From: Anaerobutyricum hallii | GTDB lineage: Bacteria > Bacillota > Clostridia > Lachnospirales > Lachnospiraceae | Assembly: GCF_900209925.1 (NCBI RefSeq) | Contig: NZ_LT907978.1 | Coordinates: 294,001 to 358,000, forward strand | Length of the DNA: 64,000 bases | Direction of reading: 5' to 3' | Shown here: one piece after another, positions 22,165 through 62,613 of the stretch | How positions within the stretch are numbered: the first letter of the stretch is position 1 | Layout of the letters: the number at the start of each line of letters is the position of its first letter | Notes under the pieces: generated by a model | Databases searched by the model: none | Seen by the model: only the letters and a program-made list of their open reading frames with translations | What the model was told of the DNA's origin: nothing | Translations under genes and position numbers: made by a program

Positions 22165-22281
22165 GAAAAAAGAAACAATACCCTATCCCAGATGCGGCTT
22201 CGGAGCGTGTTTAAGATGCGAATGAGTATTTTAAACACAGCGACTACAGAGCAGATGGGATAGGGTATTGTTTCTTTTTTC
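22165..22281 (+). repeat. Family B palindrome, copy B1
   Basis: This is a 117-bp hairpin. The outer stem is GAAAAAAGAAACAATACCC + TATCCCA, fully paired with its right arm. The conserved internal loop reads CGGCTTCGGAGCG on the left and AGCGACTACAGAGC on the right. The inner stem is GTGTTTAAGATGC paired with two G-T pairs. Copy-specific stem bases CAATACCC are matched by GGGTATTG. The T-rich right end could terminate plus-strand transcripts. Confidence 0.87.
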
Positions 22282-22457
22282 GTCTGTTTTCTTCTAAATG
22301 AATCAAATAGTAATTCCATGCAACAGAAGTACTTATTTTTTCGGCATATATAGTAAAGGAAAAAGTAATTTCATTACTATGCAGTGTGAGATATAAATCT
22401 GCTACAAGACTTATGGCAGAATTTATTATATATTTTATAGAGAAGGAGGAGAGCATT

Positions 22458-23267
22458 ATGAGTGAAAAGTGGGATTTCTTAAAGGAAGTGACGGATATCG
22501 ATGACCGTTTTATTGAAGAAGCTGCAGGAGAGTGGATACAGCCTATAAGAAATGTACAGCAGATTCTTGTAAAGATAGCGGCGTGTTTTGCAATTATTGT
22601 GTCATTGCTGCTTTCTGGTGTATCATTTAACCCGACGGCAAGAGTAATGGCAGAAAATATCAGAATAAAGATAGACAGAATATTGGGAAGTCGTGAAGAT
22701 CTGACTTCGTATGCGCAGATACTCAATACAACAAAAACGGTAGCGGATGTGGATGTTACGCTGGAAAATGTTATATTAGATGAAGATACTCTGTATGTTT
22801 TGCTGGATGTTAACGGCAAAAGAGAAAGTGTAAACGAAGATGAGGATCAGGTGGACATTGCGCCGAGTGGAAGCATATGCATCAATGGAAAGAGCATGGA
22901 TGATGTTATGGGAAACCGGAGTACAGGGATAAGTCACAGTCTTGGGGAAAAAGGGACAGAGGTTCTTATAAAGTATGTATTTGATGGATATACATTTCCT
23001 GAGAAGATAGAAAAATTAAAGATACCGTTTAAAATCATACGTTATATAACTAAGGAATATGAGACTCCAGATGCAACTGTACTTGGCGATGTAGAATTTA
23101 CATTTTCAGCATCAAGAAAGGAACTGCAAGCTTCCGCAAAAAGTGTAGAGACAGACATAAAGGTTAAGCTTAGAAATAATACAGAAGTTCAAGTTCAAAA
23201 GGTTCGTGTCAGTAAAGTGGCAAGCAGAATCACAATTTACAAAAACCTTGTCATTTTTTTCTTATGA
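22458..23267 (+). CDS. DUF4179-type anti-sigma-like membrane protein, probably truncated
   Basis: The 269-residue protein has a short cytoplasmic N-terminus (to about residue 38), one membrane span (VKIAACFAIIVSLLLSGVSF) and an extracellular DUF4179-like domain (ILNTTKTVADVDVTLENVILDEDTL). Proteins of this kind are usually anti-sigma factors encoded next to an ECF sigma gene, but none is present here. The C-terminus ends abruptly in ITIYKNLVIFFL and is shorter than family members, so the 3' end may be lost. The ATG at 22458 has AGAAGGAGGAGAG upstream and is preferred to an in-frame ATG at 22386. Function is inferred by family only. Confidence 0.65.
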   Translation: MSEKWDFLKEVTDIDDRFIEEAAGEWIQPIRNVQQILVKIAACFAIIVSLLLSGVSFNPTARVMAENIRIKIDRILGSREDLTSYAQILNTTKTVADVDVTLENVILDEDTLYVLLDVNGKRESVNEDEDQVDIAPSGSICINGKSMDDVMGNRSTGISHSLGEKGTEVLIKYVFDGYTFPEKIEKLKIPFKIIRYITKEYETPDATVLGDVEFTFSASRKELQASAKSVETDIKVKLRNNTEVQVQKVRVSKVASRITIYKNLVIFFL

Positions 23268-23284
23268 AAAGTGTCAAAAAGTGC

Positions 23285-23290
23285 TATAAT
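23285..23290 (+). promoter_or_regulatory. Extended -10 element upstream of cfa
   Basis: TGCTATAAT has a perfect -10 hexamer at 23285-23290 with the TG extension; no good -35 at 16-18 bases. It would give a leader of about 135 bases for the cfa gene. Confidence 0.5.
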
Positions 23291-23430
23291 CCCCTATGGC
23301 AGAATATATTCTGTAATAAAACTGAATAAACTAGTTATTTTATGGAAGAATGTTTCGTAGAGACAAGGCGATTTTACACCTTCATCGAGGAGACATCCGA
23401 TTGATTGAGCAAAAGATTGGAGTGACAGAG

Positions 23431-24637: not shown

Positions 24638-25213
24638 ATGAATATCATATTAGCATCCGGTTCCCCAAGAAGGAGAGAACTTTTGGCGCAGGCCGGTTTT
24701 GAATTTAAAGTAGAAGTAAGTAATGCAGATGAGAATGTTATAGAAGAGTCACCAGAACAAATGGTGGAAGAACTTGCCGCGAGAAAAGCAGAGGCGGTAG
24801 TTAGACTTCATAATAAAGCAGAGGATAACTGTCTTGTAATTGGGGCAGATACCATAGTAGTACTCGAAGGAAAAGTTCTGGGGAAACCTGTGGATGAAGA
24901 AGATGCAAAGACAATGCTGGCTTCCCTTTCCGGCCGAACTCATCAGGTATACACAGGAGTTGCATTATTTTACGTAAAAAAAGGTACTGTGGAAAAAAAG
25001 GAAACATTTCATGAGTGTACGGATGTCACGATGGTGCCAATGTCAGAACAGGAAATAGCAGATTATGTCGCTTCCGGTGATCCGTTAGATAAGGCTGGTG
25101 CATATGGTATTCAGGGACCGGCAGCGGTATTTATCTCTGGAATCAAAGGAGATTATTATAACGTCGTAGGGCTGCCAATCAGCAAAATATATCATAAACT
25201 ACTAATTTGCTAG
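24638..25213 (+). CDS. maf: Maf-family nucleoside triphosphate pyrophosphatase
   Basis: The 191-residue protein hydrolyses dTTP/UTP or modified nucleotides to monophosphates. The signature SGSPRRREL is at residues 7-15, with IGADTIVV and the KAGAYGIQGPAAVFISGIKGDYYNVVGLP block (cited in parts: GAYGIQG, GDYYNVVGLP) near the end. GAGGAGC precedes the ATG. The final residues LLIC and the stop come from CTACTAATTTGCTAG, which is the outer arm of the intergenic repeat, so the native C-terminus was replaced by repeat sequence. Confidence 0.93.
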   Translation: MNIILASGSPRRRELLAQAGFEFKVEVSNADENVIEESPEQMVEELAARKAEAVVRLHNKAEDNCLVIGADTIVVLEGKVLGKPVDEEDAKTMLASLSGRTHQVYTGVALFYVKKGTVEKKETFHECTDVTMVPMSEQEIADYVASGDPLDKAGAYGIQGPAAVFISGIKGDYYNVVGLPISKIYHKLLIC

Positions 25214-25268
25214 GGACACAGACGCCGCTTTAGTAGAAGATATTGAGCTGAATTATATGGAGTCTTCT

Positions 25269-25417
25269 AAAGAAAAAAAGAATTGTGATAAGTTTGATTT
25301 TGTTCCGTTGCGCTAAACGCTTCATTTTGCCTCAAAAAACGAGTCCGAAGTTTTCAGAGTCAAAATTCCACAGCGCAAAGTCACAAAATCTAACTTATCA
25401 CAATTCTTTTTTTCTTT
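25269..25417 (+). repeat. Family A palindrome, shortened copy A3
   Basis: The 149-bp copy has the outer arms GAATTGTGATAAG/CTTATCACAATTC, where a T-to-G change on the left is matched on the right. About 17 bases of the apical hairpin left arm (cgaaaacttcggaaaa) are missing, so the apical helix is lost. It looks like a decaying copy and comes directly after maf. Confidence 0.75.
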
Positions 25418-25509
25418 ATTATAGTCTTCTTACAATTCAGCATAAAATTTTGTTTCAGCGGCTGTCTGTTTTTGATAACAAATAGCAAATTAGTGATTTG
25501 TGTTGGAAA

Positions 25510-25672
25510 GAGAAGGGGATTCTCCAGAAGATTCTGACTTTTAATCAAAGAACTATTTCGCGATAAGAAAATAGCAAGGGATACCGGCAAAAGAAATAGA
25601 ACTCCTTATATAAATGTCAGTTTCTTGGAATTTGATTTCCTGGAAAGCCATAGACTTCTGGACAATCCCCTT
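25510..25672. repeat. Family J inverted-repeat segment, copy J3
   Basis: The left edge is AGAAGGGGATTCTCCAGAAG and the right edge CTTCTGGACAATCCCCTT. It lies between A3 and the composite module at 25690. Confidence 0.55.
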
Positions 25673-25760
25673 ATTCTTCCTCAAACAAAAATACTAATTT
25701 GAGGGGGACACAGACGCCGCTTTAGTAGAAGATATTGAGCTGAATTGTAGTTAGTCTTGT

Positions 25761-25926
25761 AAAGAAAAAAGAATAGTTATAAGTTAGATTTTGTTCCGTT
25801 GCGCTAAACGCTTCATTTTGCCTCAAAAAACGAAAACTTCGGAAAAACGAGTCCGAAGTTTTCAGAGTCAAAATTCCACAGCGCAAAGTCACAAAATGCA
25901 ATACTTATAACTATTCTTTTTTCTTT
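25761..25926 (+). repeat. Family A palindrome, copy A4
   Basis: The 166-bp hairpin has outer arms GAATAGTTATAAG/CTTATAACTATTC and an apical AAACTTCGG/CCGAAGTTT stem. The stretch GCAATACTTATAAC is intact; in A6 the same stretch carries the IS. Confidence 0.85.
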
Positions 25927-26237
25927 ATCATAGTCTTCTTACAATTCAGCATAAAATTTTATTTCAGCGGCTGACTGGATTTGATAACAAATAGCAAATT
26001 AGTAATTTGGGTTAGAAAGAGAAGGGGATTCTCCAGAAGATTATGAGAGTTAACCAGAGAAAAAATTCTCCATAAGATAGGAGTCATCTCACATCTGATA
26101 TGATTTTATACAATCAAGTAAAAAATATCTTCTTCTGGAGATATTCATTCTAACGAAATCATAGACTTTTGGAGAAACCCCATGTTTTCCTCAAACAAAA
26201 ATACTAATTCTCACCAACTGTGAGTTTTGTATAGTCA

Positions 26238-26354
26238 GAAAAAAGAAATAATACCATATCCCAGATGCGGCTTCGGAGCGTGTTTAAGATGCGAACGAGC
26301 ATCTTAAATACAGCGACTACAGAGCAGATGGGATATGGTATTATTTCTTTTTTC
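26238..26354 (+). repeat. Family B palindrome, copy B2
   Basis: The 117-bp copy has stem-specific bases TAATACCA paired with TGGTATTA and the constant loop CGGCTTCGGAGCG / AGCGACTACAGAGC. The flanks TATAGTCAG and CGTCTATA extend the stem. It lies just before the ung promoter. Confidence 0.87.
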
Positions 26355-26384
26355 GTCTATACGAAATCTACAAATTAGTAGTTA

Positions 26385-26413
26385 TTGCACTGTTCATGAG
26401 TATAGGCTATAAT
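26385..26413 (+). promoter_or_regulatory. Sigma-A promoter of ung
   Basis: TTGCAC (26385-26390) and TATAAT (26408-26413) with a 17-base spacer. It starts directly after the end of repeat module M1, so the repeat insulates ung from maf. Confidence 0.75.
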
Positions 26414-26454
26414 AGCAATATAGATAAAACAGTGAAGGAAATAGAGGATAAAAT

Positions 26455-27129
26455 ATGGCAGCGATTAATAATGATTGGGCGGAGGCGCTCAAAGAAGAAT
26501 ATAAGAAACCGTATTACAGGGAACTTTATAAAAAGGTGAATGAGGAATATCAGACACATGAAATTTTTCCTCCGTCTGATGAGATATTCAGTGCGTTTCA
26601 TTTGACACCGTTAAAGGATGTTAAGGTTGTGATCCTTGGACAGGATCCGTACCATAATAACGGGCAGGCACATGGATTAAGCTTTTCTGTAAAGCCGGGG
26701 GTAGATATTCCGCCATCATTGGTTAATATTTATAAGGAACTTCATGATGACCTTGGTTGTTATATTCCGAATAATGGGTATTTGGTAAAGTGGGCAGAGC
26801 AAGGTGTCCTTTTATTAAATACGGTTCTTACTGTTCGGGCGCATCAGGCGAATTCTCATAGAGGAATCGGATGGGAAGAGTTTACGGATGCAGCGATACG
26901 TGTACTTAATGCACAGGATCGGCCAATTGTATTTTTGCTTTGGGGAAGGCCGGCACAGAATAAAAAGCCGATGCTTACGAACCCCAATCATTTAATTTTA
27001 GAGGCGCCACATCCAAGTCCGTTGTCTGCTTATCGTGGATTTTTTGGATGCAGGCATTTTAGTCAGGCAAATGAATTCCTGCGTTTTCATGAGCTTGAAC
27101 CAATTGATTGGCAGATAGAGAATATTTAG
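26455..27129 (+). CDS. ung: Uracil-DNA glycosylase (family 1)
   Basis: The 224-residue enzyme removes uracil from DNA in base-excision repair. The water-activating motif GQDPYH has its Asp at residue 64, and the leucine-loop motif HPSPLS begins at His186. LLLNTVLTVR and SHRGIGWE are typical of the family. The length matches E. coli Ung. A sigma-A promoter and GAGGATAAAAT precede the ATG at 26455. The following ArsC-like gene is 66 bases away and may be co-transcribed. Confidence 0.96.
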   Translation: MAAINNDWAEALKEEYKKPYYRELYKKVNEEYQTHEIFPPSDEIFSAFHLTPLKDVKVVILGQDPYHNNGQAHGLSFSVKPGVDIPPSLVNIYKELHDDLGCYIPNNGYLVKWAEQGVLLLNTVLTVRAHQANSHRGIGWEEFTDAAIRVLNAQDRPIVFLLWGRPAQNKKPMLTNPNHLILEAPHPSPLSAYRGFFGCRHFSQANEFLRFHELEPIDWQIENI

Positions 27130-27195
27130 ATTCTTGGAAGGTATAAAAGTATTTTAAAAATTTTTAAAGAAAGATAAGAAGGAGAGAGGATAAGG

Positions 27196-27549
27196 ATGAA
27201 AGTTTTATTTGTAGAGTATCCAAAGTGTTCCACATGTAAGAAAGCAGGTAAGTGGCTGAAAGATCATGATGTGGAGTTTGATGACAGACATATTGTAGAA
27301 GAGAATCCAACTGCGGAAGAGTTAAAGGAATGGCATGCGAAAAGTGGTCTTCCATTAAAGCGTTTCTTCAATACAAGTGGACAGGTTTATCGTAATAATG
27401 GAATTAAAGATAAACTGCTTGGAATGAGTGAAGAAGAGCAGTATGCGTTACTGGCAACAGATGGTATGCTTGTGAAACGACCAATCGTTGTAGGTGAAGA
27501 TTTTGTTTTGGTCGGGTTTAAAGAAAAAGAATGGGAAGAGAAGTTATAA
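27196..27549 (+). CDS. ArsC/Spx-family thioredoxin-fold protein
   Basis: The 117-residue protein has Cys11 and Cys14 in PKCSTCKKA, the CxxC form found in the YffB/Spx-like branch, and the late family motif VKRPIVVGEDFVLVGF. Arsenate reductases of this fold keep one catalytic Cys and three Arg residues; the present sequence has an Arg in the RP motif. It may be a stress regulator or a reductase; no ars genes are nearby. GGAGAGAGGA lies upstream of the ATG. The assignment to the family is firm, the role is not. Confidence 0.85.
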   Translation: MKVLFVEYPKCSTCKKAGKWLKDHDVEFDDRHIVEENPTAEELKEWHAKSGLPLKRFFNTSGQVYRNNGIKDKLLGMSEEEQYALLATDGMLVKRPIVVGEDFVLVGFKEKEWEEKL

Positions 27550-27567
27550 AGACTTTGGGATGGGGAA

Positions 27568-27678
27568 ATAGAGTTACGTCAGATAGAGTTTTTTTTACAG
27601 TTATATAAAGATAGAAATGTTACTGTTGCGAGTCAGAATCTATATATTTTTTTTATATGCTTGAGGTTTATCTTGTAA
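27568..27678 (+). pseudogene. Remnant of a LysR-family regulator (N-terminal helix-turn-helix)
   Basis: The frame reads ELRQIEFFLQLYKDRNVTVA and then SQNLYI, which resembles the first 26 residues of LysR regulators (ELRQLxxFxxL...). After that the similarity stops and a TAA follows at 27676. No start codon is present (ATA instead of ATG). No second half of a LysR gene is found in this 343-base spacer. Based on pattern only. Confidence 0.4.
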
Positions 27679-27823
27679 CGATGAAACAGGAGAATTATAA
27701 AGTAGAAACAGAGAAGTATATCGCTTATGAAAAGAGGCTTCATAAGGATAGATATAGCTAGAGAGTGGTGATTTTACAAGTTGTAAAAATCCGATGCAGG
27801 GAATATAGAATAGTAAATGAAAT

Positions 27824-27852
27824 GAGGCACAGACATTGGAAATCTGTGCCTC
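27824..27852. terminator. Bidirectional terminator between arsC-like and CDF genes
   Basis: GAGGCACAGA (27824-27833) and TCTGTGCCTC (27843-27852) form a 10-bp perfect stem with a 9-base loop. On the minus strand it is followed by ATTTCATTT, which fits termination of the CDF gene transcript. Confidence 0.65.
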
Positions 27853-27892
27853 GGCTTATTGAATAGGAAGAAAAACTAAAAGTTGTGACGGC

Positions 27893-29074
27893 TTAGCTTT
27901 CCGGTGCTTCAAAACTTCTATCTAATGTAATAATACATTCTACATTTTCATCCATTTCGTGAAGAAGAGATACAAGCTGATGCATCACGCGGTTTGCATC
28001 TTTTTCAGAATAAGAATCAGGAATCACTAGATCAAAAATGAGATTTCGTTGTTCATTTTCTTTTAAAACACGAAAATCATGAAAATTCAATTCAGGATCA
28101 AGCGCATGAACAATGCGGGAAGTCTTCTCTCGAAGAGAAAGAACTTCTTCATCACGCATTTCGACCGGATCCATATGGATAACAAGAAGAATATTCAAAT
28201 CTTTTTTTACATCGCGTTCAATCTTATCAATAATTTCATGCGATACGTCAATATTAATATCATTCGGAACTTCGGCATGAATGGTAGCCATGCTTCGATT
28301 CGGACCATAGTTATGGACGATCAGATCGTGCGTTCCGACAATTCCATCATAAGATTCTACGATATCTGTAATCTTCTGATAAAGTTCCGCAGGGACACGC
28401 TCACCGATTAAAGGTTCTAACGTATCCTTTGCAATAGAGATACCGGACCAGATAACAATAGCAGATACAATGAGGCCGGCAATCGCATCGACATTAATGG
28501 ATGTAAAGTGGCAGATAATAATCGAAAGTACAGTAGCACTCGTTGTGATAACATCTCCGAGAGAATCCGCTGCAGTTGCAAGCATAACTTTAGAATCAAT
28601 TCTTTTACCAAGTTTATTATTAAAAAATGCCATCCATAACTTTACAAGGATTGATAAAATAAGGATAACAAATGGTACAAGATCAAAACTGATTTCTTCT
28701 GGATGCAGTATCTTAGAAATCGAACTTTTAAAGAAAGTAAATCCAACTTCAATAACAAGAAATGAAACAATTAAAGCCGCAATATACTCAATTCTTCCAT
28801 GTCCAAAAGGATGCTCCGCATCTGCGGGCTTCCCGGCCATTTTCACCCCGATAAAGCTGATAATAGACGAAGCAGCATCGGATAAGTTATTAAAAGCATC
28901 TGCGGTAACAGCAAGAGAACTTAAAATAAGTCCGATCGTAAGTTTTACGGAAAACAACAAAACATTACAAAAAATCCCAACAACGCTGGTAAGCATACCA
29001 TAGCGAGTCCGGACTTCTGTACTTTCAATATTGGTACTGTCTTTTATAAATTTGTTTACAAGAAAATCTGTCAT
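27893..29074 (-). CDS. Cation diffusion facilitator (CDF) family transporter
   Basis: The 393-residue protein has the CDF pattern: six membrane spans, the metal-site ADAFNNLSDAASS in span II, HPFGHGR in the loop after span III, and a matching AADSLGDVITT in span V, followed by a cytoplasmic domain of about 190 residues that seems to repeat a ferredoxin-like fold. CDF proteins export Zn, Fe, Mn or Cd by proton antiport. The metal cannot be read with certainty; two Asp plus Asn in each site is closer to the Mn/Fe type than to the HxxxD zinc type. It is monocistronic. Confidence 0.9.
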   Translation of the reverse strand: MTDFLVNKFIKDSTNIESTEVRTRYGMLTSVVGIFCNVLLFSVKLTIGLILSSLAVTADAFNNLSDAASSIISFIGVKMAGKPADAEHPFGHGRIEYIAALIVSFLVIEVGFTFFKSSISKILHPEEISFDLVPFVILILSILVKLWMAFFNNKLGKRIDSKVMLATAADSLGDVITTSATVLSIIICHFTSINVDAIAGLIVSAIVIWSGISIAKDTLEPLIGERVPAELYQKITDIVESYDGIVGTHDLIVHNYGPNRSMATIHAEVPNDINIDVSHEIIDKIERDVKKDLNILLVIHMDPVEMRDEEVLSLREKTSRIVHALDPELNFHDFRVLKENEQRNLIFDLVIPDSYSEKDANRVMHQLVSLLHEMDENVECIITLDRSFEAPES

Positions 29075-29200
29075 AAATATCCCCCTAGCTGTAGCTGTAA
29101 TATTTACTCCACTATAACAGTTTATGAAAAAAACTGCAAGCTAATCTTTGGAAGGTATATCTAATTATGTTTAGGAATAGAAAATCAAAAACGACCAATA

Positions 29201-30016
29201 TTAAATTAATTTAAAATGCTTTAAGGCATTCCTGATTCCATCCCTGTCAATCGGGGTTGTAACATAGGAGGTGTTTCTAAGCACTTCAGGATAGGCATTT
29301 CCCATAGCAATACTATTCTTTACATGAGTGAGCATAGAAAGATCATTTGTACTATCACCAAATACATAGCAGTCATCTAAAGATGCTTTAAGATGCTTTA
29401 CAATGAAATCGATACCACTTGCTTTGGAACATCCTTTAGGAACAATCTCTTCGAATCCGTAAGGATGCATTTCCTCTCTTATTATAAAGTCAAAGTTATC
29501 TTTTAGCTTCGTGTGAAATAAATCAATATCACTGTTTGTGTCTGTTAAAATAATGAACTTGTCAAAAGCTAAAACAGGGTCGTCAAGAAAACGAATGGGA
29601 TGTTCAAGATTTGTCTTTGCATAAGAATTACGAATAGTGATAATTGGTGCAAAGACTTCTGCATCATTTTTTGCCTGAAAATAGCAAGAATTTCGACCTT
29701 CGCATACGGCCTGAATTTTACATTCTGTTAAAATATCATCTAAACTGCGTTTTAAAGAATCATCAAGATCATAATGATAAAGAGTTTCTCCATGAAAGAT
29801 TACTTCTGTACCACAACCGCATACATAGCCATCAAAAGGAAATTCCTTAATTGCTTCTGGCATAAATCCGTATGTGCGTCCACTGTTGATGAAAATATAA
29901 TGTCCATTTGCCTGTGCCTGCTTTAAAGCTTCTATAGCGCTGTCAGGAATATATCCGGGAATGCCTCCGGCAAGCAGTGTGCCGTCAATATCAAAAAATA
30001 AAAGTTTTCTATTCAT
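29201..30016 (-). CDS. HAD-superfamily (Cof-type, IIB) phosphatase
   Basis: The 271-residue protein has the nucleophile and acid aspartates Asp9 and Asp11 (FFDIDGTL), motif II INSGR, and motif IV GDSTNDLSML near residue 217, with the long C2B cap between them. These enzymes dephosphorylate sugar phosphates or pyridoxal phosphate. The start at 30016 has AAAGGA upstream; the longer frame to 30109 passes through repeat E1, so it is not used. The 5' leader contains E1. Confidence 0.88.
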   Translation of the reverse strand: MNRKLLFFDIDGTLLAGGIPGYIPDSAIEALKQAQANGHYIFINSGRTYGFMPEAIKEFPFDGYVCGCGTEVIFHGETLYHYDLDDSLKRSLDDILTECKIQAVCEGRNSCYFQAKNDAEVFAPIITIRNSYAKTNLEHPIRFLDDPVLAFDKFIILTDTNSDIDLFHTKLKDNFDFIIREEMHPYGFEEIVPKGCSKASGIDFIVKHLKASLDDCYVFGDSTNDLSMLTHVKNSIAMGNAYPEVLRNTSYVTTPIDRDGIRNALKHFKLI

Positions 30017-30040
30017 AAAAAATCCTTTCTTATATTTTGC

Positions 30041-30110
30041 GGGACCCAAAGTCAAATACCTTATCGTGCAAGAATGAACGGAGTTTTGAACTTTTGCCCC
30101 AGACATCATG
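30041..30110 (-). repeat. Family E motif, long form (E1)
   Basis: In minus-strand order it has GGGGCAAAAG, then the central AACTCCGTTCATTCTTGCAC, then GATAAGGTATTTGACTTTGG and GTCCC. Ends GGG(G)C-AAAAG and CTTTGGGTCCC are loosely complementary. It lies in the 5' leader of the HAD gene. E2 is about 90 percent identical. Confidence 0.65.
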
Positions 30111-30286
30111 AAATTAAAAGCATTCAGAATTAATTTTCTGAAAACGAACGAAAATAATTATAGCATATATTTTATCAGAAGGGAAATGAGAGAAAGTTGG
30201 AGATTGATTTAGTTGGAAAATATAAAAAAATATGTTATTATGTTAAAAATAGAAATAGATAGAACTATGAGAAAGGATGAAGTACA

Positions 30287-30808
30287 ATGGCAAACCCAAT
30301 TGTTACAATTACGATGGAAAATGGAGATGTAATCAAAGCAGAATTATATCCACAGATTGCTCCAAACACAGTGAATAACTTTATTTCATTAATTAATAAG
30401 GGATTTTATGATGGACTGATTTTCCATCGTGTTATTAAAGGATTTATGATTCAGGGAGGATGCCCTCTTGGAAACGGAACCGGCAATCCGGGATACAGTA
30501 TTAAAGGAGAATTCTCTAATAACGGATTTACAAATCAGTTAAAGCACGAAGCAGGTGTGCTTTCCATGGCTCGTTCCATGATGCCAAACTCTGCAGGCTC
30601 CCAGTTCTTTATCATGCATAAGGCAGCTCCACATCTTGACGGAGAATATGCCGCATTTGGTAAAGTAATTGAAGGAATGGATGTTGTAGATAAGATTGCA
30701 TCTGTGAAGACATTTATGGATTCTCCATACGAAAAACAGGTAATGGCATCCGTAACTGTAGATACACAGGGAGAAGAATATCCAGAACCAGAAAAAATAG
30801 AAAAATAA
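30287..30808 (+). CDS. ppiB: Peptidyl-prolyl cis-trans isomerase (cyclophilin type)
   Basis: The 173-residue cytoplasmic cyclophilin speeds proline isomerisation during protein folding. FHRVIKGFMIQGG near residue 46 holds the catalytic Arg, and SMARSMMPNSAGSQFFI is the substrate groove. No signal peptide is present. GAAAGGATG precedes the ATG. A 19-bp perfect terminator stem follows, so it is monocistronic. Confidence 0.96.
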   Translation: MANPIVTITMENGDVIKAELYPQIAPNTVNNFISLINKGFYDGLIFHRVIKGFMIQGGCPLGNGTGNPGYSIKGEFSNNGFTNQLKHEAGVLSMARSMMPNSAGSQFFIMHKAAPHLDGEYAAFGKVIEGMDVVDKIASVKTFMDSPYEKQVMASVTVDTQGEEYPEPEKIEK

Positions 30809-30845
30809 ACATTCTGTGTTTGAATTTCAATAGAAGAAATTGGCC

Positions 30846-30897
30846 GAACCAGAAAAAGTACAGACTTTGTATCTGTACTTTTTCTGGTTCATTTTTT
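30846..30897 (+). terminator. Rho-independent terminator of ppiB
   Basis: GAACCAGAAAAAGTACAGA (30846-30864) pairs perfectly with 30872-30890; loop CTTTGTA; followed by ATTTTTTG. Confidence 0.9.
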
Positions 30898-30910
30898 GTT
30901 AAATTAAATT

Positions 30911-30934
30911 CAAGTCGAGCAGCCGCGAGACTTG
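30911..30934 (+). repeat. Short palindromic motif K (K2)
   Basis: CAAGTCGAGCAG / CCGCGAGACTTG; the ends CAAGTC and GACTTG pair. It recurs inverted at 21831-21854 with one difference. Confidence 0.5.
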
Positions 30935-31013
30935 GCGCGTGATTCTGGTCAGCGTAAGCTGACATATTCTTTACAGAATCACTGCGCATCCTCGCGGAGC
31001 GTTTATCTCAGTC

Positions 31014-31090
31014 AGAGATTGGACTCCCACTGAGACAAATTTGCTGTCACTCACCACCTGAAAGAGGTGGGAGTCTTCTCGACTGAGATA
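31014..31090 (-). repeat. Hairpin with 40-bp motif G (G1)
   Basis: The outer arms TATCTCAGTC and GACTGAGATA enclose an inner CCACCT/AGGTGG hairpin. Bases 31050-31089 are an exact reverse complement of 58341-58380 (40 of 40). The spacer between ppiB and the HPr-like gene (329 bases) holds only the ppiB terminator, K2, a GATTCTG/CAGAATC dyad and G1. Confidence 0.65.
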
Positions 31091-31137
31091 AAATTGATGT
31101 TCTTGTGTTCATCAGTTAAGTCAAATGGATAATATCA

Positions 31138-31401
31138 TTATGCTAAAAGCTGTTCCTGTATCTGCAATGCATTCACTTCAAAATCTTTTAATGCTTTTGC
31201 AACATAATCAGCGGAATCTTCGTTATAGATGTAGAGATAAACCGGGCGGGAAATATCAAGACTGAAAATGGCCATGATGGACTTTGCATTGACAATACTG
31301 CAGCCAGACACTAAATCAAAACGTCCGTTAAATTTATTAATTATGTCTACAAAAGTTTTAATCTTATCCATAGAATTAATGGTAATGGTTTTTGTGATCA
31401 C
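31138..31401 (-). CDS. HPr-fold protein without the active-site histidine
   Basis: The 87-residue protein aligns with HPr in its middle and end (FDLVSGCSIVNAKSIMAIFS) but the region of GxHARPA is replaced by SMDKIKTFVD, so His15 is absent. The serine of NAKSIM, equivalent to regulatory Ser46, is kept at residue 41. It cannot act as a PTS phosphocarrier; a Crh-like or carbon-status role through Ser phosphorylation is possible by inference. The start is GTG at 31401 with GGAGG 8 bases upstream; a TTG at 31425 is the alternative. It is a single gene. Confidence 0.75.
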   Translation of the reverse strand: MITKTITINSMDKIKTFVDIINKFNGRFDLVSGCSIVNAKSIMAIFSLDISRPVYLYIYNEDSADYVAKALKDFEVNALQIQEQLLA

Positions 31402-31842
31402 TGGAAATGCCTCCAAAACTTTCAACGCTAAAATTAATGAATGTAACTGGTTAAAATGATTCAGAGCGGTGCCAAATGTAGAAAAAGGCAGAAACGCTCT
31501 AAATTATGGTCTTTATTTAATAAATATGATATCAGGGTCAAAAGGTCAGCACGATAAGGTGTTTGACTTTTTAATCCTAATATTATAAATATGTTAACAT
31601 TTGAAAGGACAGTTTTCAATAGAAGGAAAAGAAATTTGAGGGTAGATATTTAAACATTTCTTATGAAAAATAGACAATTCGTTGTTGTGGCATAGCAAAA
31701 AAAGTTAATAGCAAAAATATAGAAGCATTTTTCCTGAAAATGCATATACATAAAAGAAAATATTCCAGAAAATATTTCAGATAATGTGTGATGTAATGAT
31801 TTTCATATAAAAAAAGAAAGAGATTTTAAAGAAGGAGATTTT
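31402..31842. other. Spacer and leader of the Csp-like protease gene
   Basis: The 441-base region has E3 at 31529-31577, AT-rich DNA, and the ribosome site GAAGGAG at 31831-31837. I cannot assign a promoter with confidence; if the protease is a sporulation gene, a forespore sigma factor could read it. Confidence 0.4.
31529..31577 (+). repeat. Family E motif, intermediate form (E3)
   Basis: It reads ATCAGGGTCAAAAGGTCAGC, then ACGATAAGGTGTTTGACTTT. Compared with E1/E2, the part CTCCGTTCATGCTTG is missing. It lies about 270 bases before the Csp-like protease on the same strand. Confidence 0.55.
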
Positions 31843-33594: not shown

Positions 33595-33624
33595 AAAATA
33601 CTAGTTTGTAGATTTCGTGTAGAC

Positions 33625-33741
33625 GAAAAAAGAAATAATGCCCTATCCCATCTGCTCTGTAGTCGCTGTGTTTAAAATGCTCATTCGCATCTTAAACACG
33701 CTCCGAAGCCGCATCTGGGATAGGGCATTATTTCTTTTTTC
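33625..33741 (-). repeat. Family B palindrome, copy B3
   Basis: The 117-bp copy, inverted relative to B1, has stem-specific TAATGCCC paired with GGGCATTA, and the constant loop on both sides. It lies directly after the protease stop. Confidence 0.87.
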
Positions 33742-34035: not shown

Positions 34036-34155
34036 GAAAACCAGAAATTTAATATAGAAAAAAATGTGATGTCGGAGCGAGTAAAAATGCCGAGCAGGCA
34101 TTTTCTGCGAAGCGACTATCTTCACATTTTTTTCTATATTAAATTTCTGGTTTTC
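34036..34155 (+). repeat. Family C palindrome, copy C3
   Basis: The 120-bp hairpin has GTCGGAGCGAG and GAAGCGACTATC loop sides and the inner stem AAAATGCC/GGCATTTT. Its right outer arm continues into the 3' end of the XRE gene and supplies the residues NLMD and the stop. Confidence 0.85.
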
Positions 34156-39543: not shown

Positions 39544-39563
39544 GTCTACACGAAATCTACAAA

Positions 39564-40172
39564 TTAGAATTTAAATGTTTCTTTTATTCCGAGCCATTTC
39601 TGATCTTTATCACTTAAAGTAAGTGGAGTTCCATCTTCTAAATGATAGCCTTCTCCGATTGGGGAACCAGGATATTCTCCGACGAGTTTTGGCCATTTAA
39701 TATCGATTTCAGGGTCGTTCCACGCTAAACCACCTTCATCACCTGGACGGTAGAAGTCCGTACATTTATAACAAAATTCTGCAGTGTCAGATAGAACAAG
39801 AAAGCCATGGGCAAATCCTTCCGGGATATAGAATTGTTTATTGTTTTCTGCAGAAAGGATTTCTCCGAACCATTTTCCATATGTTTCAGAGTGACTTCGC
39901 AGGTCAACAACGACATCAAAAACGGTACCCTTAATCACACGAACAAGCTTACCCTGTGGATGTTGTTTTTGAAAATGTAATCCACGAAGAACACCTTTAG
40001 AAGAAGAAGACTGATTATCCTGAACAAACTCCATTGTCAGTCCTGCTTCTGCCATATCATTTTTATTATATGTTTCCATAAAATAGCCACGAGAATCACC
40101 ATGTACGGTAGGTTCAATAATACATAAACCTTCGATTCCTCCAACGTTCTTTTTTACTTTAATCTGTCCCAA
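39564..40172 (-). CDS. rfbC: dTDP-4-dehydrorhamnose 3,5-epimerase
   Basis: The 202-residue cupin enzyme inverts C3 and C5 of dTDP-4-keto-6-deoxyglucose. The family segment DNQSSSSKGVLRGLHFQ (about residues 52-68) holds the catalytic His, with GKLVRVIKGTVFDVVVDLR next and FYIPEGFAHGF (about 115-125). It is the last gene of the rfbABDC operon. Its stop TAA is the outer arm of repeat B4, so the C-terminus (KETFKF) directly borders the palindrome. Confidence 0.95.
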   Translation of the reverse strand: MGQIKVKKNVGGIEGLCIIEPTVHGDSRGYFMETYNKNDMAEAGLTMEFVQDNQSSSSKGVLRGLHFQKQHPQGKLVRVIKGTVFDVVVDLRSHSETYGKWFGEILSAENNKQFYIPEGFAHGFLVLSDTAEFCYKCTDFYRPGDEGGLAWNDPEIDIKWPKLVGEYPGSPIGEGYHLEDGTPLTLSDKDQKWLGIKETFKF

Positions 40173-43456: not shown

Positions 43457-43573
43457 GAAAAAAGAAATCATATCATATCCCATCTGCTCTGTAGTCGCTG
43501 TGGTTAAGATGCTCATCCGCATCCTAATCACGCTCCGAAGCCGCATCTGGGATATGATATGATTTCTTTTTTC
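43457..43573 (-). repeat. Family B palindrome, copy B5
   Basis: 117 bp; stem-specific TCATATCA paired with TGATATGA; inner stem partly changed (GTGGTTAAGATGC / GCATCCTAATCAC) but the loop sides are as in the other copies. Between the MerR-methyltransferase 3' end and the rfbA promoter. Confidence 0.87.
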
Positions 43574-43817: not shown

Positions 43818-43934
43818 GAAAATAAAAAGAATAGACTATAGCAAATGTAATGTGAGAGCAAGTAAAAATGCCGAACAGGCATTTTCTACGCAGTGATATC
43901 TTTACATTTGCTATAGTCTATTCTTTTTATTTTC
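43818..43934 (+). repeat. Family C palindrome, divergent copy C4
   Basis: 117 bp; outer stem GAAAATAAAAAGAATAGACT... replaces the AATTTAATATAG stem of C1-C3 yet is fully paired with the right arm (AGTCTATTCTTTTTATTTTC). Inner stem AAAATGCC/GGCATTTT kept; loop signature degenerate (GAGAGCAAG / ACGCAGTGATATC). Confidence 0.8.
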
Positions 43935-53533: not shown

Positions 53534-53650
53534 GAAAAAAGAAATAATACCATATCCCATCTGCTCTGTAGTCGCTGTGTTTAAAATGCTCGTCCGCATC
53601 TTAAACACGCTCCGAAGCCGCATCTGGGATATGGTATTATTTCTTTTTTC
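53534..53650 (-). repeat. Family B palindrome, copy B6
   Basis: 117 bp; stem-specific TAATACCA/TGGTATTA as in B2, inverted orientation, constant loop. Likely terminator of the jet operon. Confidence 0.87.
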
Positions 53651-53888: not shown

Positions 53889-54078
53889 CCAACAGAAATA
53901 ATTAATTTGCTATTTGTTATCAAAACCAGACAGCCGCTGAAACAAAATTTTATGCTGAATTGTAGGAAAGCTATGGTAAAGAAAAAAGAATTGTTATAAG
54001 TGGTGTGCATCCCGTCAAGTAGACAATTAAAAAAATATAAAATTTTTGTGTTGCCCGGTTGGATATCGGGCAACATTT

Positions 54079-55011
54079 TTATGCCGCCAATCGTTGCTTT
54101 TCATGAAATTCCATTGGTGTTAATACTCCAAGTCCTCTCTGTGGTCGGTCGTTTGTATAGTAATCTATATATTCTGTGATTGCCTTCACTAATTCTTCTC
54201 TGCTCTCAAATTTCTTTCCATAATACATTTCCCGTTTCAAGATTCCCCAAAAGCCTTCCATTACTCCATTATCTGTACAGTGTGCTACCCTCGACATACT
54301 CTGTATCATTCCTGCTTCTTCCAATTTCTGATGGAATCTTCGGGAGGTATACTGATATCCTCTGTCACTGTGAAAAATAGGATGGGCTTCTGGATTTGCC
54401 TTTACTGCTTTATCAAAAGTTTCAAATACCAGCGCATTATTATTACTATCCCCAATAACATATGCAACGGGCCGTCTATCACATAAGTCTAATATAGCGC
54501 TTAAATATATTTTATGAACACTGTCTAAGGTGTTTCCATATTTGAATTCCGTTACATCAGTAACCCATTTCTCATTAAGGTGTTCTGCCTTAAATTCTCT
54601 ATTAAGAATGTTTTCTGCAATAAATGCTGGGTTGTTTGATGCTCTGGTACAGCCATTATACCGGCTCTTTAAGTTGGACCGGATCTGTTTTTTTCTGCAA
54701 ATACGGAGGATTCTCTTATCATTTACCCGAATGTCTTCATCGTGGCGCAGCTTGTCATTTAACCTTCTATATCCCATATCTGGATGTTTTTCATGTAATT
54801 GTTCCAGTTTCTCTGCCAATTCCTCGTTAAATCTCTCGTTCGGTGTCTCTACGTGATGGAGCCATTTGTAGTAGGATGATCTGGCGATTCCACCTATTTC
54901 ACATAATAACAGGATTGGATAGTTATATTTTTCGTGTTCTTCCTTGATTGCCCGATAGATATGTTCCTGGCGTATCAGGCTCAGCCTCCCCTCCTCTCTA
55001 TCTCTTCTAAT
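54079..55011 (-). CDS. IS3-family transposase OrfB (DDE catalytic part), copy 2
   Basis: Same product as the orfB of copy 1: about 310 residues in the -1 frame of orfA, open from the A7 slippery heptamer at 55011-55017 to the stop at 54079. DDE motifs WVTDVTEF, FHSDRGYQY and VMEGFWG are intact, so the element is potentially active. Confidence 0.9.
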   Translation of the reverse strand: MRRDREEGRLSLIRQEHIYRAIKEEHEKYNYPILLLCEIGGIARSSYYKWLHHVETPNERFNEELAEKLEQLHEKHPDMGYRRLNDKLRHDEDIRVNDKRILRICRKKQIRSNLKSRYNGCTRASNNPAFIAENILNREFKAEHLNEKWVTDVTEFKYGNTLDSVHKIYLSAILDLCDRRPVAYVIGDSNNNALVFETFDKAVKANPEAHPIFHSDRGYQYTSRRFHQKLEEAGMIQSMSRVAHCTDNGVMEGFWGILKREMYYGKKFESREELVKAITEYIDYYTNDRPQRGLGVLTPMEFHEKQRLAA

Positions 55012-55640
55012 TTTTTTAAGAAAGATATCTCTATTTCTGCCCGTCTTTTTTCCGCACGCAGAAGTCTTACTTCTGCACGCAGTTTTTCTACTTCCGTCAT
55101 TTCCTCTGGGGATTTTCTCTTTCCCCGCTTATCTTGCAGCCCATCCACCCCGTTTTCTTCATATCTTATAGTATAACTTCTGGCCTGATGATAAGAAATG
55201 TGAAATTTTTTTGCTGTTTCCGAATAGTTATGAGAATGTTTTATGCAATATTGAACGATCTCGACACGTTCTTCAAATGTAGTTTTTCTGCCTTTAGTCA
55301 TGATTGGTCTACCTCCTGTTTCCTTATCATGACTATTATACTTCATAATCCATCTTCTGAGTATCTGTGCATCTGAAATTTTGTGTTTGGCACAGATATC
55401 CCGGAGAGAACCTTTTCCAGAAAGATAATCGAAAACAGCTGCTTCTTTTTGAGCAGGAGTTCGATAGGTATGACCTTTTCGAAAAAAAGCTTCCGGTCCA
55501 ATTGATTGATAATTTCTAAGCCATTTATCAACGGTCGTATAATAAACTCCTATTTTTGATGCAACAGAACTGATGGATTCTTTTTTCTGAAGAATTTTTT
55601 CCATCCATTGTATTTTTTCTTCTGGAGAAATCTTATCCAT
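54981..55640 (-). CDS. IS3-family transposase OrfA, copy 2
   Basis: Identical to orfA of copy 1 (219 residues, two HTH segments, C-terminal leucine-rich coil). The ATG at 55640 follows AAAGGGGG. The slippery heptamer is at 55011-55017. Intact. Confidence 0.92.
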   Translation of the reverse strand: MDKISPEEKIQWMEKILQKKESISSVASKIGVYYTTVDKWLRNYQSIGPEAFFRKGHTYRTPAQKEAAVFDYLSGKGSLRDICAKHKISDAQILRRWIMKYNSHDKETGGRPIMTKGRKTTFEERVEIVQYCIKHSHNYSETAKKFHISYHQARSYTIRYEENGVDGLQDKRGKRKSPEEMTEVEKLRAEVRLLRAEKRRAEIEISFLKKLEEIERRGG

Positions 55641-55938
55641 AAAAAATGCCCCCTTTCAGATAAACAGTTTTATTTTTTTCAACTGTCTACCTAAAAGGAA
55701 GCATACCATAAGTATTGCATTTTGTGACTTTGCGCTATGGCATTCTGACCATAGGAACTAGGGACTCGTTTTTCCCAAGTTCCTGTTTTTCTGGGCAGAA
55801 TGGAATGCTTAGCGCAACGGAACAAAATCAAACTTATAACAATTCTTTTTTTCTTTAGAAGACGAACTACAATTCAGCTCAATATCTTCTACTAAAGCGG
55901 CGTCTGTGTCCCCAGCAAATTCGTATTTCCAATTTATC

Positions 55939-60537: not shown

Positions 60538-61206
60538 ATGACAATAGATTTATCACCAATTATTATATCTTTAAGGACAGCTACACTCAGTATTATTGTT
60601 ACATTTTTTCTGGGAGTAGCTGCAGCCCAGCTTGTTTTCCGTCTGAAGAGTAAGACGATGAAAACAATATTAGATGGGCTATTTACCCTGCCGCTCGTGT
60701 TTCCGCCAACAGTGGCAGGATTTTTTTTACTATATATTTTCGGGATGCGAAGACCAATCGGTAAGTTTTTTATTGAATATTTTGCTGTCAAGGTTGCCTT
60801 TTCATGGGGAGCAACTGTTTTAGCTGCAGTTGTTATCTCGTTTCCGCTAATGTACCGGGCAGCAAGAGGGGCTTTTGAACAGGTAGATCCAGATGTACTT
60901 TCTGCAGGAAGGACAATTGGAATGAGTGAATGGAAGATCTTCTGGAAAGTACAGCTTCCGATTGCCTGGCCAGGAGTTATCTCCGGGGCGGTACTCGCCT
61001 TTGCCAGAGGATTAGGAGAGTTTGGGGCAACAGCAATGATTGCCGGTAATATCAAGGGAAAGACAAGAACACTGCCACTTGCGGTATATTCCGCTGTCGC
61101 ATCAGGTAACATGAAGGAAGCAGGGGAGTATGTAGCGGTTCTTGTATGTATTTCCTTTATTGTAGTCATATGTATGAATTATTTTTCTATGGAGAAGAAA
61201 GGCTAG
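60538..61206 (+). CDS. modB: Molybdate ABC transporter, permease
   Basis: The 222-residue permease has five or six membrane spans and the EAA loop (AGRTIGMSEWKIFWKVQLPI, followed by AWPGVISGAVLAFARGLGEFGA) that docks to ModC. Length fits ModB. The ribosome site is weak (AGGCTGG), 49 bases after modA. modC starts 5 bases after its stop. Confidence 0.94.
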   Translation: MTIDLSPIIISLRTATLSIIVTFFLGVAAAQLVFRLKSKTMKTILDGLFTLPLVFPPTVAGFFLLYIFGMRRPIGKFFIEYFAVKVAFSWGATVLAAVVISFPLMYRAARGAFEQVDPDVLSAGRTIGMSEWKIFWKVQLPIAWPGVISGAVLAFARGLGEFGATAMIAGNIKGKTRTLPLAVYSAVASGNMKEAGEYVAVLVCISFIVVICMNYFSMEKKG

Positions 61207-61210
61207 AACT

Positions 61211-62299
61211 ATGGCATTATCTGTTCACATAAAAAAGAAGTTAAAAGATTTTGAATTAGCGGTTGACTTTGATATGGAGGAAGGAATTGTTGGATTTCTT
61301 GGTTCTTCCGGGTGTGGGAAGAGTATGACTTTAAAATGTATTGCCGGAATAGAAACACCCGATGAAGGAAGTATTGTCCTTGATGGTGAAGTGTTATTTG
61401 ATAAGAAAGCAGGGATTGATCTTTCACCACAAAAACGTAAAGTCGGATATCTATTTCAAAATTATGCACTATTTCCGCATATGACAGTACGACAGAATAT
61501 TGAAGCAGGACTGGAAGCATCGGGAAAGTCAAAACAGGAAAAAAAAGATATCGTAGAACGCCTTCTGGAACAGTTTCATATAAAAGAATTAGAAAATTCG
61601 TATCCGGTTCGTATTTCAGGAGGGCAGCAACAGAGGGCGGCACTGGCTCGTATGATGGCAGCAGAGCCAAAGTTTCTGTTATTAGACGAACCCTTTTCAG
61701 CATTAGATACCTATTTGAAAGAAAAATTGATGCAGGAAATGATGACCTATCTTAGTCAGTTTAAAAAAGGGGTTATCATGGTATCCCACAGTAGAGATGA
61801 AGTATATCAGATGTGTACTGACACAGCAATCATGCATCAGGGAATCTTAGAAACTGTCGGAAAAACAAAAGAGATTTTCGATAATCCGGGAACCGTCAAT
61901 GCGGCAAGGCTCACAGGCTGTAAAAATATTTCTAAAGCAGACAAACTCAGTGAATCGGAAATTTATGCTTCGGAGTGGGATATAAAACTCACATTTCCAG
62001 AATACATAAAAATTCCGTCTAATCTTACCCATGTAGGAATCCGCGCACACGAAATCCGTCCAGTAAAGTTTTCAGACATAGATAATAATACATCTATAAA
62101 GTTGAATATGGTAGATTGCCAGTTGAAACGCATATCCGAAGCACCATTTGAGATGTATCTTATCTTAGAAAATAAAAGCGGAAAAAGTACGAGTCCGCTA
62201 TGGTGGAAAGTCACTAAAAAAGAATGGAAAGAAATTGGAGAAACAGTACCAGAGACAGTAGAATTGCCTGTAGAAAAGGTTATACTATTACAACACTAA
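61211..62299 (+). CDS. modC: Molybdate ABC transporter, ATP-binding protein
   Basis: The 362-residue ATPase has Walker A GSSGCGKS (about 32-39), the Q-loop FQNYALFP, the signature RISGGQQQRAALARM and Walker B FLLLDEPFSALD. After residue 230 comes a C-terminal beta-rich domain (HVGIRAHEI) as in molybdate-type ATPases, which may sense intracellular molybdate. It is 5 bases after modB. Its 3' end overlaps the reading of a decayed gene on the other strand and is followed by repeat B7. Confidence 0.94.
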   Translation: MALSVHIKKKLKDFELAVDFDMEEGIVGFLGSSGCGKSMTLKCIAGIETPDEGSIVLDGEVLFDKKAGIDLSPQKRKVGYLFQNYALFPHMTVRQNIEAGLEASGKSKQEKKDIVERLLEQFHIKELENSYPVRISGGQQQRAALARMMAAEPKFLLLDEPFSALDTYLKEKLMQEMMTYLSQFKKGVIMVSHSRDEVYQMCTDTAIMHQGILETVGKTKEIFDNPGTVNAARLTGCKNISKADKLSESEIYASEWDIKLTFPEYIKIPSNLTHVGIRAHEIRPVKFSDIDNNTSIKLNMVDCQLKRISEAPFEMYLILENKSGKSTSPLWWKVTKKEWKEIGETVPETVELPVEKVILLQH

Positions 62300-62444
62300 G
62301 GTGATTCGAAAAAATAATTCCAGCCAGAACACCACAGAGAAAATCATCGCCACCTAGTGTTAATCCAAGTCCAATTAGGTGGCAGAAGGACTGTGTAGAT
62401 TCTTCCCAGTTTGAAATAGACAGAGCATGGGAAGCATTCTCAAG
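62280..62444 (-). pseudogene. Remnant of a DUF2877 (AllH-like) gene
   Basis: On the minus strand a 54-codon frame closed at both ends (TAG at 62445-62447, TAA at 62280-62282) reads ESTQSFCHLIGLGLTLGGDD, FLCGVLAGIIF. This resembles the GLGPGLTPSGDDFLxG signature of DUF2877 proteins (oxamate carbamoyltransferase-related), which are about 270 residues long. No start and no other parts remain. It overlaps the last 20 bases of modC. Confidence 0.5.
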
Positions 62445-62494
62445 CTATTTCCTGGCTGCAGAAAGAAAAATAAAACTGTAGATTTAGATAGTCA

Positions 62495-62613
62495 GAAAAA
62501 AAGAAATAATATCCTATCCCAGATGCGGCTTCGGAGCGCGTTTAAGATGCGGACGATCATTTTAAACACAGCGACTACAGAGCAGATGGGATAGGATATT
62601 ATTTCTTTTTTTT
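62495..62613 (+). repeat. Family B palindrome, copy B7
   Basis: 119 bp (one extra A/T pair in the end tracts); stem-specific TAATATCC paired with GGATATTA; constant loop CGGCTTCGGAGCG / AGCGACTACAGAGC; inner stem GCGTTTAAGATG with one mismatch. Between convergent modC and the DeoR gene. Confidence 0.87.

What the first reader, a model, noticed from the sequence alone, without database searches (positions are those of the whole stretch)
22165..62613. Seven copies of a 117-bp hairpin (family B) with covarying stems and a constant internal loop
Copies at 22165, 26238, 33625, 39427, 43457, 53534 (all 117 bp) and 62495 (119 bp). Each has an outer stem of about 26 bp. The variable part of that stem reads CAATACCC, TAATACCA, TAATGCCC, TACTGGCA, TCATATCA, TAATACCA and TAATATCC, and in every copy the other arm carries the exact complement. 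The internal loop (CGGCTTCGGAGCG on one side, AGCGACTACAGAGC on the other) barely changes. Differences in the inner stem are mostly G-U compatible. So pairing is maintained while sequence drifts, and the unpaired bases are conserved. A plain terminator would not need a constant loop, so a protein, ribozyme-like or nuclease recognition function is worth testing. Gene conversion between arms is the main alternative.
Basis: seen in the sequence. Interest (0 to 1): 0.82.

Follow-up and report, generated by a model that had tools for sequence, protein, structure and literature searches.

The report
Mobile hairpins parked behind stop codons
Two closely related gut bacteria carry well over a hundred copies each of a long DNA hairpin, usually parked just behind a gene's stop codon in one fixed orientation; its two arms tend to change together like mirror images while its inner core stays constant, which makes it a natural test of how long hairpins stay paired.

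Summary
In detail: all seven 117-bp copies have exactly matching 26-bp arms and near-constant inner loops. Genome-wide, 147 full-length copies are listed, from a capped search. They belong to a superfamily: the loop pair TCGGAGC/GCGACTA, inside long paired arms, occurs 167 times in this Anaerobutyricum genome and 183 times in A. hallii, and at background in the other genus and family genomes sampled. Outer arms change mostly in mirror image, over half of the mirrored cells being transversions; the inner stem instead tolerates G·T on one strand. Elements lie just behind stop codons in one orientation: right end 78 of 112, left end 12 of 108; 37 of 47 versus 4 of 51 in a second set. At four of nine compared window sites A. 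hallii has a different hairpin at the same stop codon, same orientation. Best reading: a lineage-specific REP/MITE-like mobile hairpin, core kept by selection, arms kept paired largely by arm-to-arm copying. Terminator function is not the shared trait. No REP transposase passes its cut-off. Mobility and mechanism are inferred.

The parts
22165..22281 (+). Family B hairpin (strand given = the strand with the purine-rich GGAG/CGAC loop). Right end not at a stop codon by the rule
26238..26354 (+). Family B hairpin. Right end not at a stop codon by the rule; A. hallii has a small different palindrome at this place
33625..33741 (-). Family B hairpin behind the stop codon (33594) of a + gene with a Peptidase_S8 domain; A. 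hallii has a different hairpin at the same stop codon
39427..39543 (+). Family B hairpin with right end at the stop codon (39564) of a - gene; site empty in A. hallii
43457..43573 (-). Family B hairpin, right end not at a stop codon by the rule; A. hallii keeps the end sequence but no full hairpin at this place
53534..53650 (-). Family B hairpin behind the stop codon (53506) of a JetC-like gene; A. hallii has a different hairpin (variant core) at the same stop codon
62496..62612 (+). Family B hairpin with right end at the stop codon (62641) of a - gene; same element in A. hallii with most of the hairpin deleted
1126..1243 (+). Family C hairpin (33-bp exact arms, loops TGTCGGAGC / GCGACTATCT), right end toward stop codon at 1303
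21313..21432 (-). Family C hairpin (34-bp exact arms) behind stop codon 21286; A. hallii has a different hairpin at the same stop codon
34036..34155 (+). Family C hairpin (34-bp exact arms)
43818..43934 (+). Family D hairpin (33-bp exact arms, loops TGTGAGAGC / GTGATATCT), right end at stop codon 43955; A. hallii has a different hairpin there with the same end sequence
39544..39573 (+). Outer right end of a B element (GTCTACACGAAATCTACAAATTAGAATTTA); it contains the stop codon (39564-39566) of the neighbouring - gene
25268..25418 (.). Family A hairpin (27-bp exact arms, different loops); other A copies at 697-840, 21578-21721, 25765-25908, 36958-37112, 55708-55851; not part of the superfamily but found in the same mosaics

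Best explanation
The hairpins are a lineage-specific, non-autonomous dispersed repeat of the REP/MITE kind. Each unit is a long hairpin: an outer end that meets the gene, a junction (mostly CA before and GTC after the arm), a variable paired stem of mostly 24-34 bp, a constant irregular core with tandem G·A pairs, an inner stem and a free apical loop. Shown: copy number, structure, restriction to two species among those sampled, orientation at stop codons, and different hairpins at the same stop codons in the sister species. Inferred: (1) units spread and replace one another by transposition or recombination; (2) the purine-rich strand, antisense to the adjacent gene, is recognised in folded form by an unknown trans-acting factor, because wobble pairs become common in the inner stem only on that strand; (3) the outer arms are kept alike mainly by arm-to-arm copying (template switching on the hairpin during replication, or an equivalent step of mobilisation) and less by stepwise compensatory mutation under selection.
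For: Copies: 167 and 183 strict core matches in the two species with 0 in the reversed-pattern control, 0-1 in each of the other 22 genomes of the genus; of 397 family genomes all but these two have 0-3, controls 0-5. Of 92 distinct strict matches in held loci, the 89 from the two species all have long arms and the 3 from other genomes (G008, G013, G020) have none. The family B covariance model finds families C and D in the window at E 3e-12 to 4e-10 (rough E-values) on the purine-rich strand and matches none of the other 22 genomes. Orientation at stops: right 78/112, left 12/108; 37/47 versus 4/51 in a non-overlapping set. Strand: inner stem G·T 59, A·C 6; purine strand folds better in 105 of 114 (examples). 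Arms: 3140 of 3156 cells Watson-Crick in 114 elements; family B 65 mirrored cells versus 27 one-sided, 37 of the 65 transversions; 120 versus 30 with 71 transversions in the second set; two-sided length changes (27-bp arm type); 29 pairs of copies with identical 65-nt cores show 31 mirrored and 5 one-sided arm changes. Turnover: site empty in A. hallii at 39427; different hairpin, same stop, same orientation at 33625, 53534, 21313, 43818; own copy L019 is a B core on the left flank of the A element that A. hallii has there.
Against: No mobilising enzyme was found; Y1 transposases do not track the elements. No target-site duplication was established. Copies share ancestry and exchange sequence, so counts are not independent events. 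In family B the number of distinct wobble positions in the inner stem is 6 G·T against 5 A·C; only their frequencies differ. B arms show a mild G·T excess (13:7:5). Over all 106 nearest-core pairs the ratio is weaker, 164 mirrored to 99 one-sided, though that set includes the 27-bp arm type out of register. 16 of 63 copies have one-sided arm changes, as stepwise compensation would predict. The second set came from a list ranked by a pairing-aware model, which favours paired copies, and its inner stems hold 6 transversion doubles of 16. The 114 elements were found by requiring at least 12 exact arm pairs. Conversion of the core between copies could also yield identical cores with differing arms.
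Confidence: 0.5

Rival explanations
1. Arms are kept paired by selection alone: a folded RNA or single strand is needed, and compensatory point mutations restore pairing one base at a time.
For: Inner stem behaves so (G·T 59, A·C 6); one-sided intermediates exist in 16 of 63 copies and B arms have G·T 13, A·C 7; 164 mirrored to 99 one-sided over 106 nearest-core pairs; shuffling control strongly exceeded.
Against: In the outer arms double transversions outnumber double transitions (37:28:49), wobble pairs are rare (5 of 3156; 13 of 1638), length changes are two-sided, and most pairs with identical cores already carry mirrored changes (23 of 29).
Confidence: 0.32
2. The elements are bidirectional intrinsic transcription terminators of the adjacent genes, spread by recombination.
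For: They sit behind stop codons; 31 of 67 B matches lie between convergent genes by a simple ORF rule; family B arms begin with a run of A and end with a run of T; T run of 5 or more in 121 of 162 distinct own hairpins.
Against: Only 4 of 27 A. hallii hairpins have such a T run; a constant core is not needed for termination; a simple terminator scan of 25000-44500 did not flag the B hairpins, though its loop limit of 8 nt lets it see only the inner stem; the orthologue of the 39564 gene has no element.
Confidence: 0.12
3. A structured RNA (regulatory or protein-binding) transcribed from the purine-rich strand.
For: Wobble on that strand; core conserved across unrelated stems; strong fold, z -15 for the 26238 copy.
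Against: No Rfam family at gathering score in the window; at E up to 1 the hairpins of 33500-44100 match only microRNA models far below gathering score; that strand is antisense to the adjacent gene; not found in 22 other genomes of the genus, unlike a housekeeping RNA.
Confidence: 0.15
4. Interlocus gene conversion or homologous recombination between copies explains both arm agreement and site sharing; no mobile step exists.
For: Chimeric copies with arms of two types (L016 at 2261-2377, L025 at 1738-1854); L019 graft at the shared GAAAAAAGAA.
Against: Exchange between copies breaks arm agreement, as the chimeras show, and does not create new mirrored arms; an empty site exists.
Confidence: 0.2

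Closest known systems
REP elements, GTAG and CGTC super-families (PMC3733652)
   Same: Palindromes, often >100 copies, complementary stem variants within a family, G·T pairs in stems, next to 3' ends of genes and between convergent genes; the GTAG end can supply the stop codon. Our arm/flank junction reads CGTC in 89 of 113 elements, with CA on the other side in 96, reminiscent of the CGTC tag and CCA tail.
   Different: Those are 20-40 bp, CGTC stems 8-9 bp, loops 4-5 nt; these have arms mostly 24-34 bp, an irregular core and an inner stem. The five CGTC phyla named in the text do not include Firmicutes, a word that does not occur in its main text.
MITE-type bacterial repeats (ERIC, RUP, NEMIS, Bcr1, EFAR; listed in PMC3733652)
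   Same: 70-300 bp, intergenic, non-coding, strong secondary structure, ends resembling inverted repeats.
   Different: No parental insertion sequence was sought and no target duplication established; unrelated outer stems around one constant core. That bcr1 shows compensatory changes is recalled; one search gave only search listings.
Hairpins made and maintained by template switching (PMC8794818)
   Same: Multi-base compensatory changes that keep stems paired without a G·U step.
   Different: Inferred there for RNA genes by ancestral reconstruction; here in a high-copy repeat with 26-34 bp arms, without such reconstruction.
Integron attC sites (recalled)
   Same: Folded bottom strand recognised through unpaired features, variable stem, directly behind a stop codon, fixed orientation.
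   Different: No cassette array was seen; elements lie at scattered chromosomal genes in both directions; no integrase was sought.

Membership tests
GTAG/CGTC REP elements | Palindrome tagged with GTAG or CGTC at one end | tested here: met
   CGTC at the right arm junction in 89 of 113 elements, counting the paired C
GTAG/CGTC REP elements | Length 20-40 bp; CGTC stems 8-9 bp, loops 4-5 nt | tested here: not met
   Family B core 117 bp; arms 16-36 bp, mostly 26-34, around a spacer of about 50-65 nt
GTAG REP with RAYT | REP-associated tyrosine transposase in the genome | tested here: not met
   NF047646: 0 of 2 genomes over the cut-off of 80 bits, best 28.6; the two Y1 proteins examined pass the IS200 model
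GTAG/CGTC REP elements | Placed close to 3' ends of genes | tested here: met
   78 of 112 right ends within 80 nt of the stop of an ORF of at least 80 codons; 37 of 47
MITE | Terminal inverted repeats | tested here: inconclusive
   Right ends share AAATTAGTATTT or GAATTAAATAG variants; matching left ends seen only in some copies, by eye
MITE | Target-site duplication and empty sites | tested here: inconclusive
   One clear empty site among nine compared window sites (39427); no duplication established
MITE | Parental insertion sequence with the same ends | not tested
   No search of insertion-sequence ends
Intrinsic terminator | T run after the stem on the sense strand | tested here: not met
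   Met by 121 of 162 distinct own hairpins but by only 4 of 27 in A. hallii, so not a trait of the superfamily
Known Rfam RNA family | Match at gathering score | tested here: not met
   0 matches in the window
Integron attC | Cognate integrase and cassette array | not tested
   Resemblance from memory only

The most novel reading that the evidence does not exclude
A new class of mobile hairpin that moves or is replicated through its folded single strand. The constant core is the recognition site. The arms are rewritten from each other at each cycle, so they can drift without limit yet stay paired. The places behind stop codons act as landing sites at which whole hairpins are exchanged between unrelated versions, in the same orientation to the gene.
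Probability: 0.2. Interest if true: 0.82.

Novelty: new variant of a known kind. Interest (0 to 1): 0.6.

Why it matters
How long stems keep their pairing (stepwise compensation or template switching) is an open question. Here one repeat seems to offer both regimes side by side: an inner stem where wobble is common on one strand, and an outer arm that changes mostly in mirror image, in hundreds of related copies. It also shows REP-like placement behind stop codons in a gut Lachnospiraceae, with different hairpins at the same stop codons in sister species.

Tried and rejected
Rfam at gathering threshold gave nothing; at E up to 1, microRNA models hit the long stems of families C and D far below their gathering scores. 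Two IMG/VR patterns found nothing. Genome contigs gave two A. hallii DSM 3353 contigs and one Rhodospirillaceae record that was not followed up. Y1 transposases as the mobiliser: 16 of 24 genus genomes have them, so no correlation; RAYT model below cut-off. Kink-turn reading of the core: considered by hand, no 3-nt bulge, dropped. Replication-strand orientation was not tested formally; within the window the 11 elements lie 7 plus and 4 minus. An earlier count said all 11 window elements have the right end at a stop codon; one search corrects this to 8 of 11 (22165, 26238 and 43457 fail). Terminator as the shared trait: rejected.

Rows dropped: alignment A1 uses 64 of 70 B copies (six 27-bp arm types left out); one search uses 63 of 70 (those six and one with an arm deletion); one search uses 48 of 51 for pair types and, for stops, 47 (right) and 51 (left) with at least 330 nt of flank; one search likewise 112 and 108 of 114; one search uses 113 of 114. 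merge hairpins of identical sequence. Of the 11 window elements nine were compared with A. hallii; 1126 and 22165 were not. After checking I lowered confidence in the best explanation from 0.55 to 0.50, because the arm G·T excess and the 164:99 ratio had been left out.
Full report
WHAT IS THERE. The window lies at 294001-358000 of a single-contig 3,515,670-base genome. A same-genus genome, G017, is taken to be A. hallii DSM 3353: two of its contigs, 20437 and 33110 bases long, have the lengths of named records that hold the same pattern. The window's own genome is therefore an Anaerobutyricum; that it is A. soehngenii is my guess. All seven reported hairpins are present with exact 26-bp arms.

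HOW MANY. blastn scored 40 of 203 candidates in the own genome, and all 40 matched at 95% or better. A covariance model from 64 copies (R1) matched 150 of 150 scored candidates in the own genome (a cap), 64 of 150 in A. hallii and none in the other 22 genomes of the genus; 147 own-genome places are listed, full length or within a base of it, at 124.7 bits or more. In the window R1 also finds the hairpins at 1126, 21314, 34037 and 43818 (E 3e-12 to 4e-10, rough), all on the purine-rich strand. So there is a superfamily defined by the core TCGGAGC/GCGACTA. A strict pattern for the core finds 167 places in the own genome and 183 in A. hallii, 0 in their reversed controls and 0-1 in each of 22 congeners; of 397 Lachnospiraceae, drawn evenly from a larger group, all but these two have 0-3 (controls 0-5). 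Of 92 distinct strict matches in held loci, 89 have long arms; the 3 without come from G008, G013 and G020.

ANATOMY, in purine-strand direction. Junction CA (96 of 113 before the arm), arm beginning G and ending C (100 of 113), then GTC (89 of 113). The 74 distinct arms of 20 bp or more fall into 17 clusters at 65% identity; they are graded among A. hallii members and unrelated between the main families (by eye). The core, written as a helix, has tandem G·A/A·G pairs flanked by G-C; family D changes one flanking G-C to A-T and another to G·T with the tandem G·A kept (by hand). Inner stem and apical loop follow. The purine strand folds better in 105 of 114 (10 bp of arm plus core); for the whole 26238 copy as RNA -64.9 against -55.3 kcal/mol, as DNA -37.1 against -34.3.

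TWO REGIMES OF COVARIATION. Inner stem: G·T 59, A·C 6, other 2 over 114 elements, register chosen blind to the two wobble types; in family B double changes are transitions only (9 cells), though the second set has 6 transversion doubles among 16. By distinct positions family B has 6 G·T and 5 A·C, so the strand asymmetry rests on which variants became common. Outer arm: 3140 of 3156 cells Watson-Crick, with 5 G·T, 5 A·C and 6 others (elements chosen for at least 12 exact pairs). In family B without that condition, G·T 13, A·C 7 and other 7 of 1638, and 9, 5 and 16 of 1248. Mirrored changes outnumber one-sided ones 65 to 27 and 120 to 30, with transversions 37 of 65 and 71 of 120. Length changes are two-sided (27-bp arm type). 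Among 29 pairs of copies with an identical 65-nt core, 31 arm changes are mirrored and 5 one-sided; over all 106 nearest-core pairs, 164 and 99 (this includes the 27-bp type cut at 26 and so out of register). The window gives an example: 26238 and 39427 differ at 18 of 369 positions outside the hairpin and at 3 arm pairs, all mirrored. This fits arm-to-arm copying, inferred for RNA genes in PMC8794818 (abstract, start of the introduction and section 7 read), better than stepwise compensation, but does not exclude the latter: 16 of 63 copies carry unpaired arm positions.

WHERE THEY SIT. Counting ORFs of at least 80 codons with a stop within 80 nt of the arm: right end 78 of 112 (own 60 of 88, A. 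hallii 18 of 24), left end 12 of 108. In 40 further loci, which share no copy with the first set: 37 of 47 against 4 of 51. In the window 8 of 11 qualify. The purine strand is then antisense to the adjacent gene. By a simple ORF rule 31 of 67 B matches lie between convergent genes, and six such regions (L016, L028, L035, L037, L040, L042) hold two copies back to back, each with its right end at a stop. The common outer end TAAATACTAATTTGTAG carries stops in all three frames (sequence).

ORTHOLOGOUS SITES. Nine of the 11 window elements were compared with A. hallii; eight were reached through neighbouring genes, and the ninth (62495) came on a contig picked partly for a B fragment. Result: empty at 39427; a different full hairpin at the same stop and in the same orientation at 33625, 53534 (variant core), 21313 and 43818; a different small palindrome at 26238; the end only at 43457; the same element with most of the hairpin deleted at 62495; an end-like remnant at 34036. 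The outer end sequence is shared at 43818, 43457 and 62495 and differs at 33625, 53534, 21313 and 26238. Further sites, met because the A. hallii loci held repeats (a biased set), show the same outer end with another interior (L003, L016 twice, L019), no matching end (L035) or decay (L015). L019 is a B core on the left flank of the A element that A. hallii has there.

WHAT IT WORKS LIKE, AND WHAT IT IS. Placement, complementary stem variants and copy number are as in REP elements (PMC3733652: parts 1-3 of 8 and passages read). Size and architecture are not, and no RAYT passes its cut-off in either genome; RAYT features were seen in passages of PMC2817692. It is not a terminator family, since the T run is absent from most A. 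hallii members. I file it as a new variant of REP/MITE-type repeats. Three searches of the paper library for such repeats in these organisms gave no paper on them (0 papers; 3 papers, judged by listing only); one search listed papers naming A. soehngenii and a complete genome, none opened. Most subscription papers are not in that library.

LIMITS. No transcript data, no within-species strain comparison, no enzyme, no target duplication. Counts over copies are not independent events.

Noticed in passing
42236-42388 (-), and a similar block at 30026-30116: Match to Clostridiales-1 RNA (RF01699), 36.8 bits, below its gathering score of 48, E 3e-5. The 91-bp block 30026-30116 is 85% identical to 42306-42396, so the window may hold two copies.
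   Followed up: no
45708-53506 (+): Four genes of a Wadjet-type system: best PADLOC matches JetD3, JetA3, JetB3, JetC3, E 1e-120 or better each. A family B hairpin stands directly behind the jetC-like stop codon.
   Followed up: partly
37242-39092 and 54001-55851: Inverted 99% complementary 1851-bp pair; the first copy holds two transposase-like genes (HTH_28/HTH_Tnp_1 and rve); both lie next to hairpin mosaics.
   Followed up: partly
697-840, 21578-21721, 25268-25418, 25765-25908, 36958-37112, 55708-55851: Family A hairpins with different loops; their arms also vary in mirror image (GAATTGTTATAAG, GAATGGTTATAAG, GAATAGTTATAAG, GAATTGTGATAAG; by eye).
   Followed up: partly
L016 2261-2377 and L025 1738-1854: Chimeric copies whose two arms belong to different arm types, evidence of exchange between copies.
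   Followed up: partly
L108 (A. hallii), about 328-448 and 656-772: Hairpins with a variant core, TTAGAGC opposite AGGGATAG or AGGGAAAC, instead of TCGGAGC/GCGACTA.
   Followed up: no
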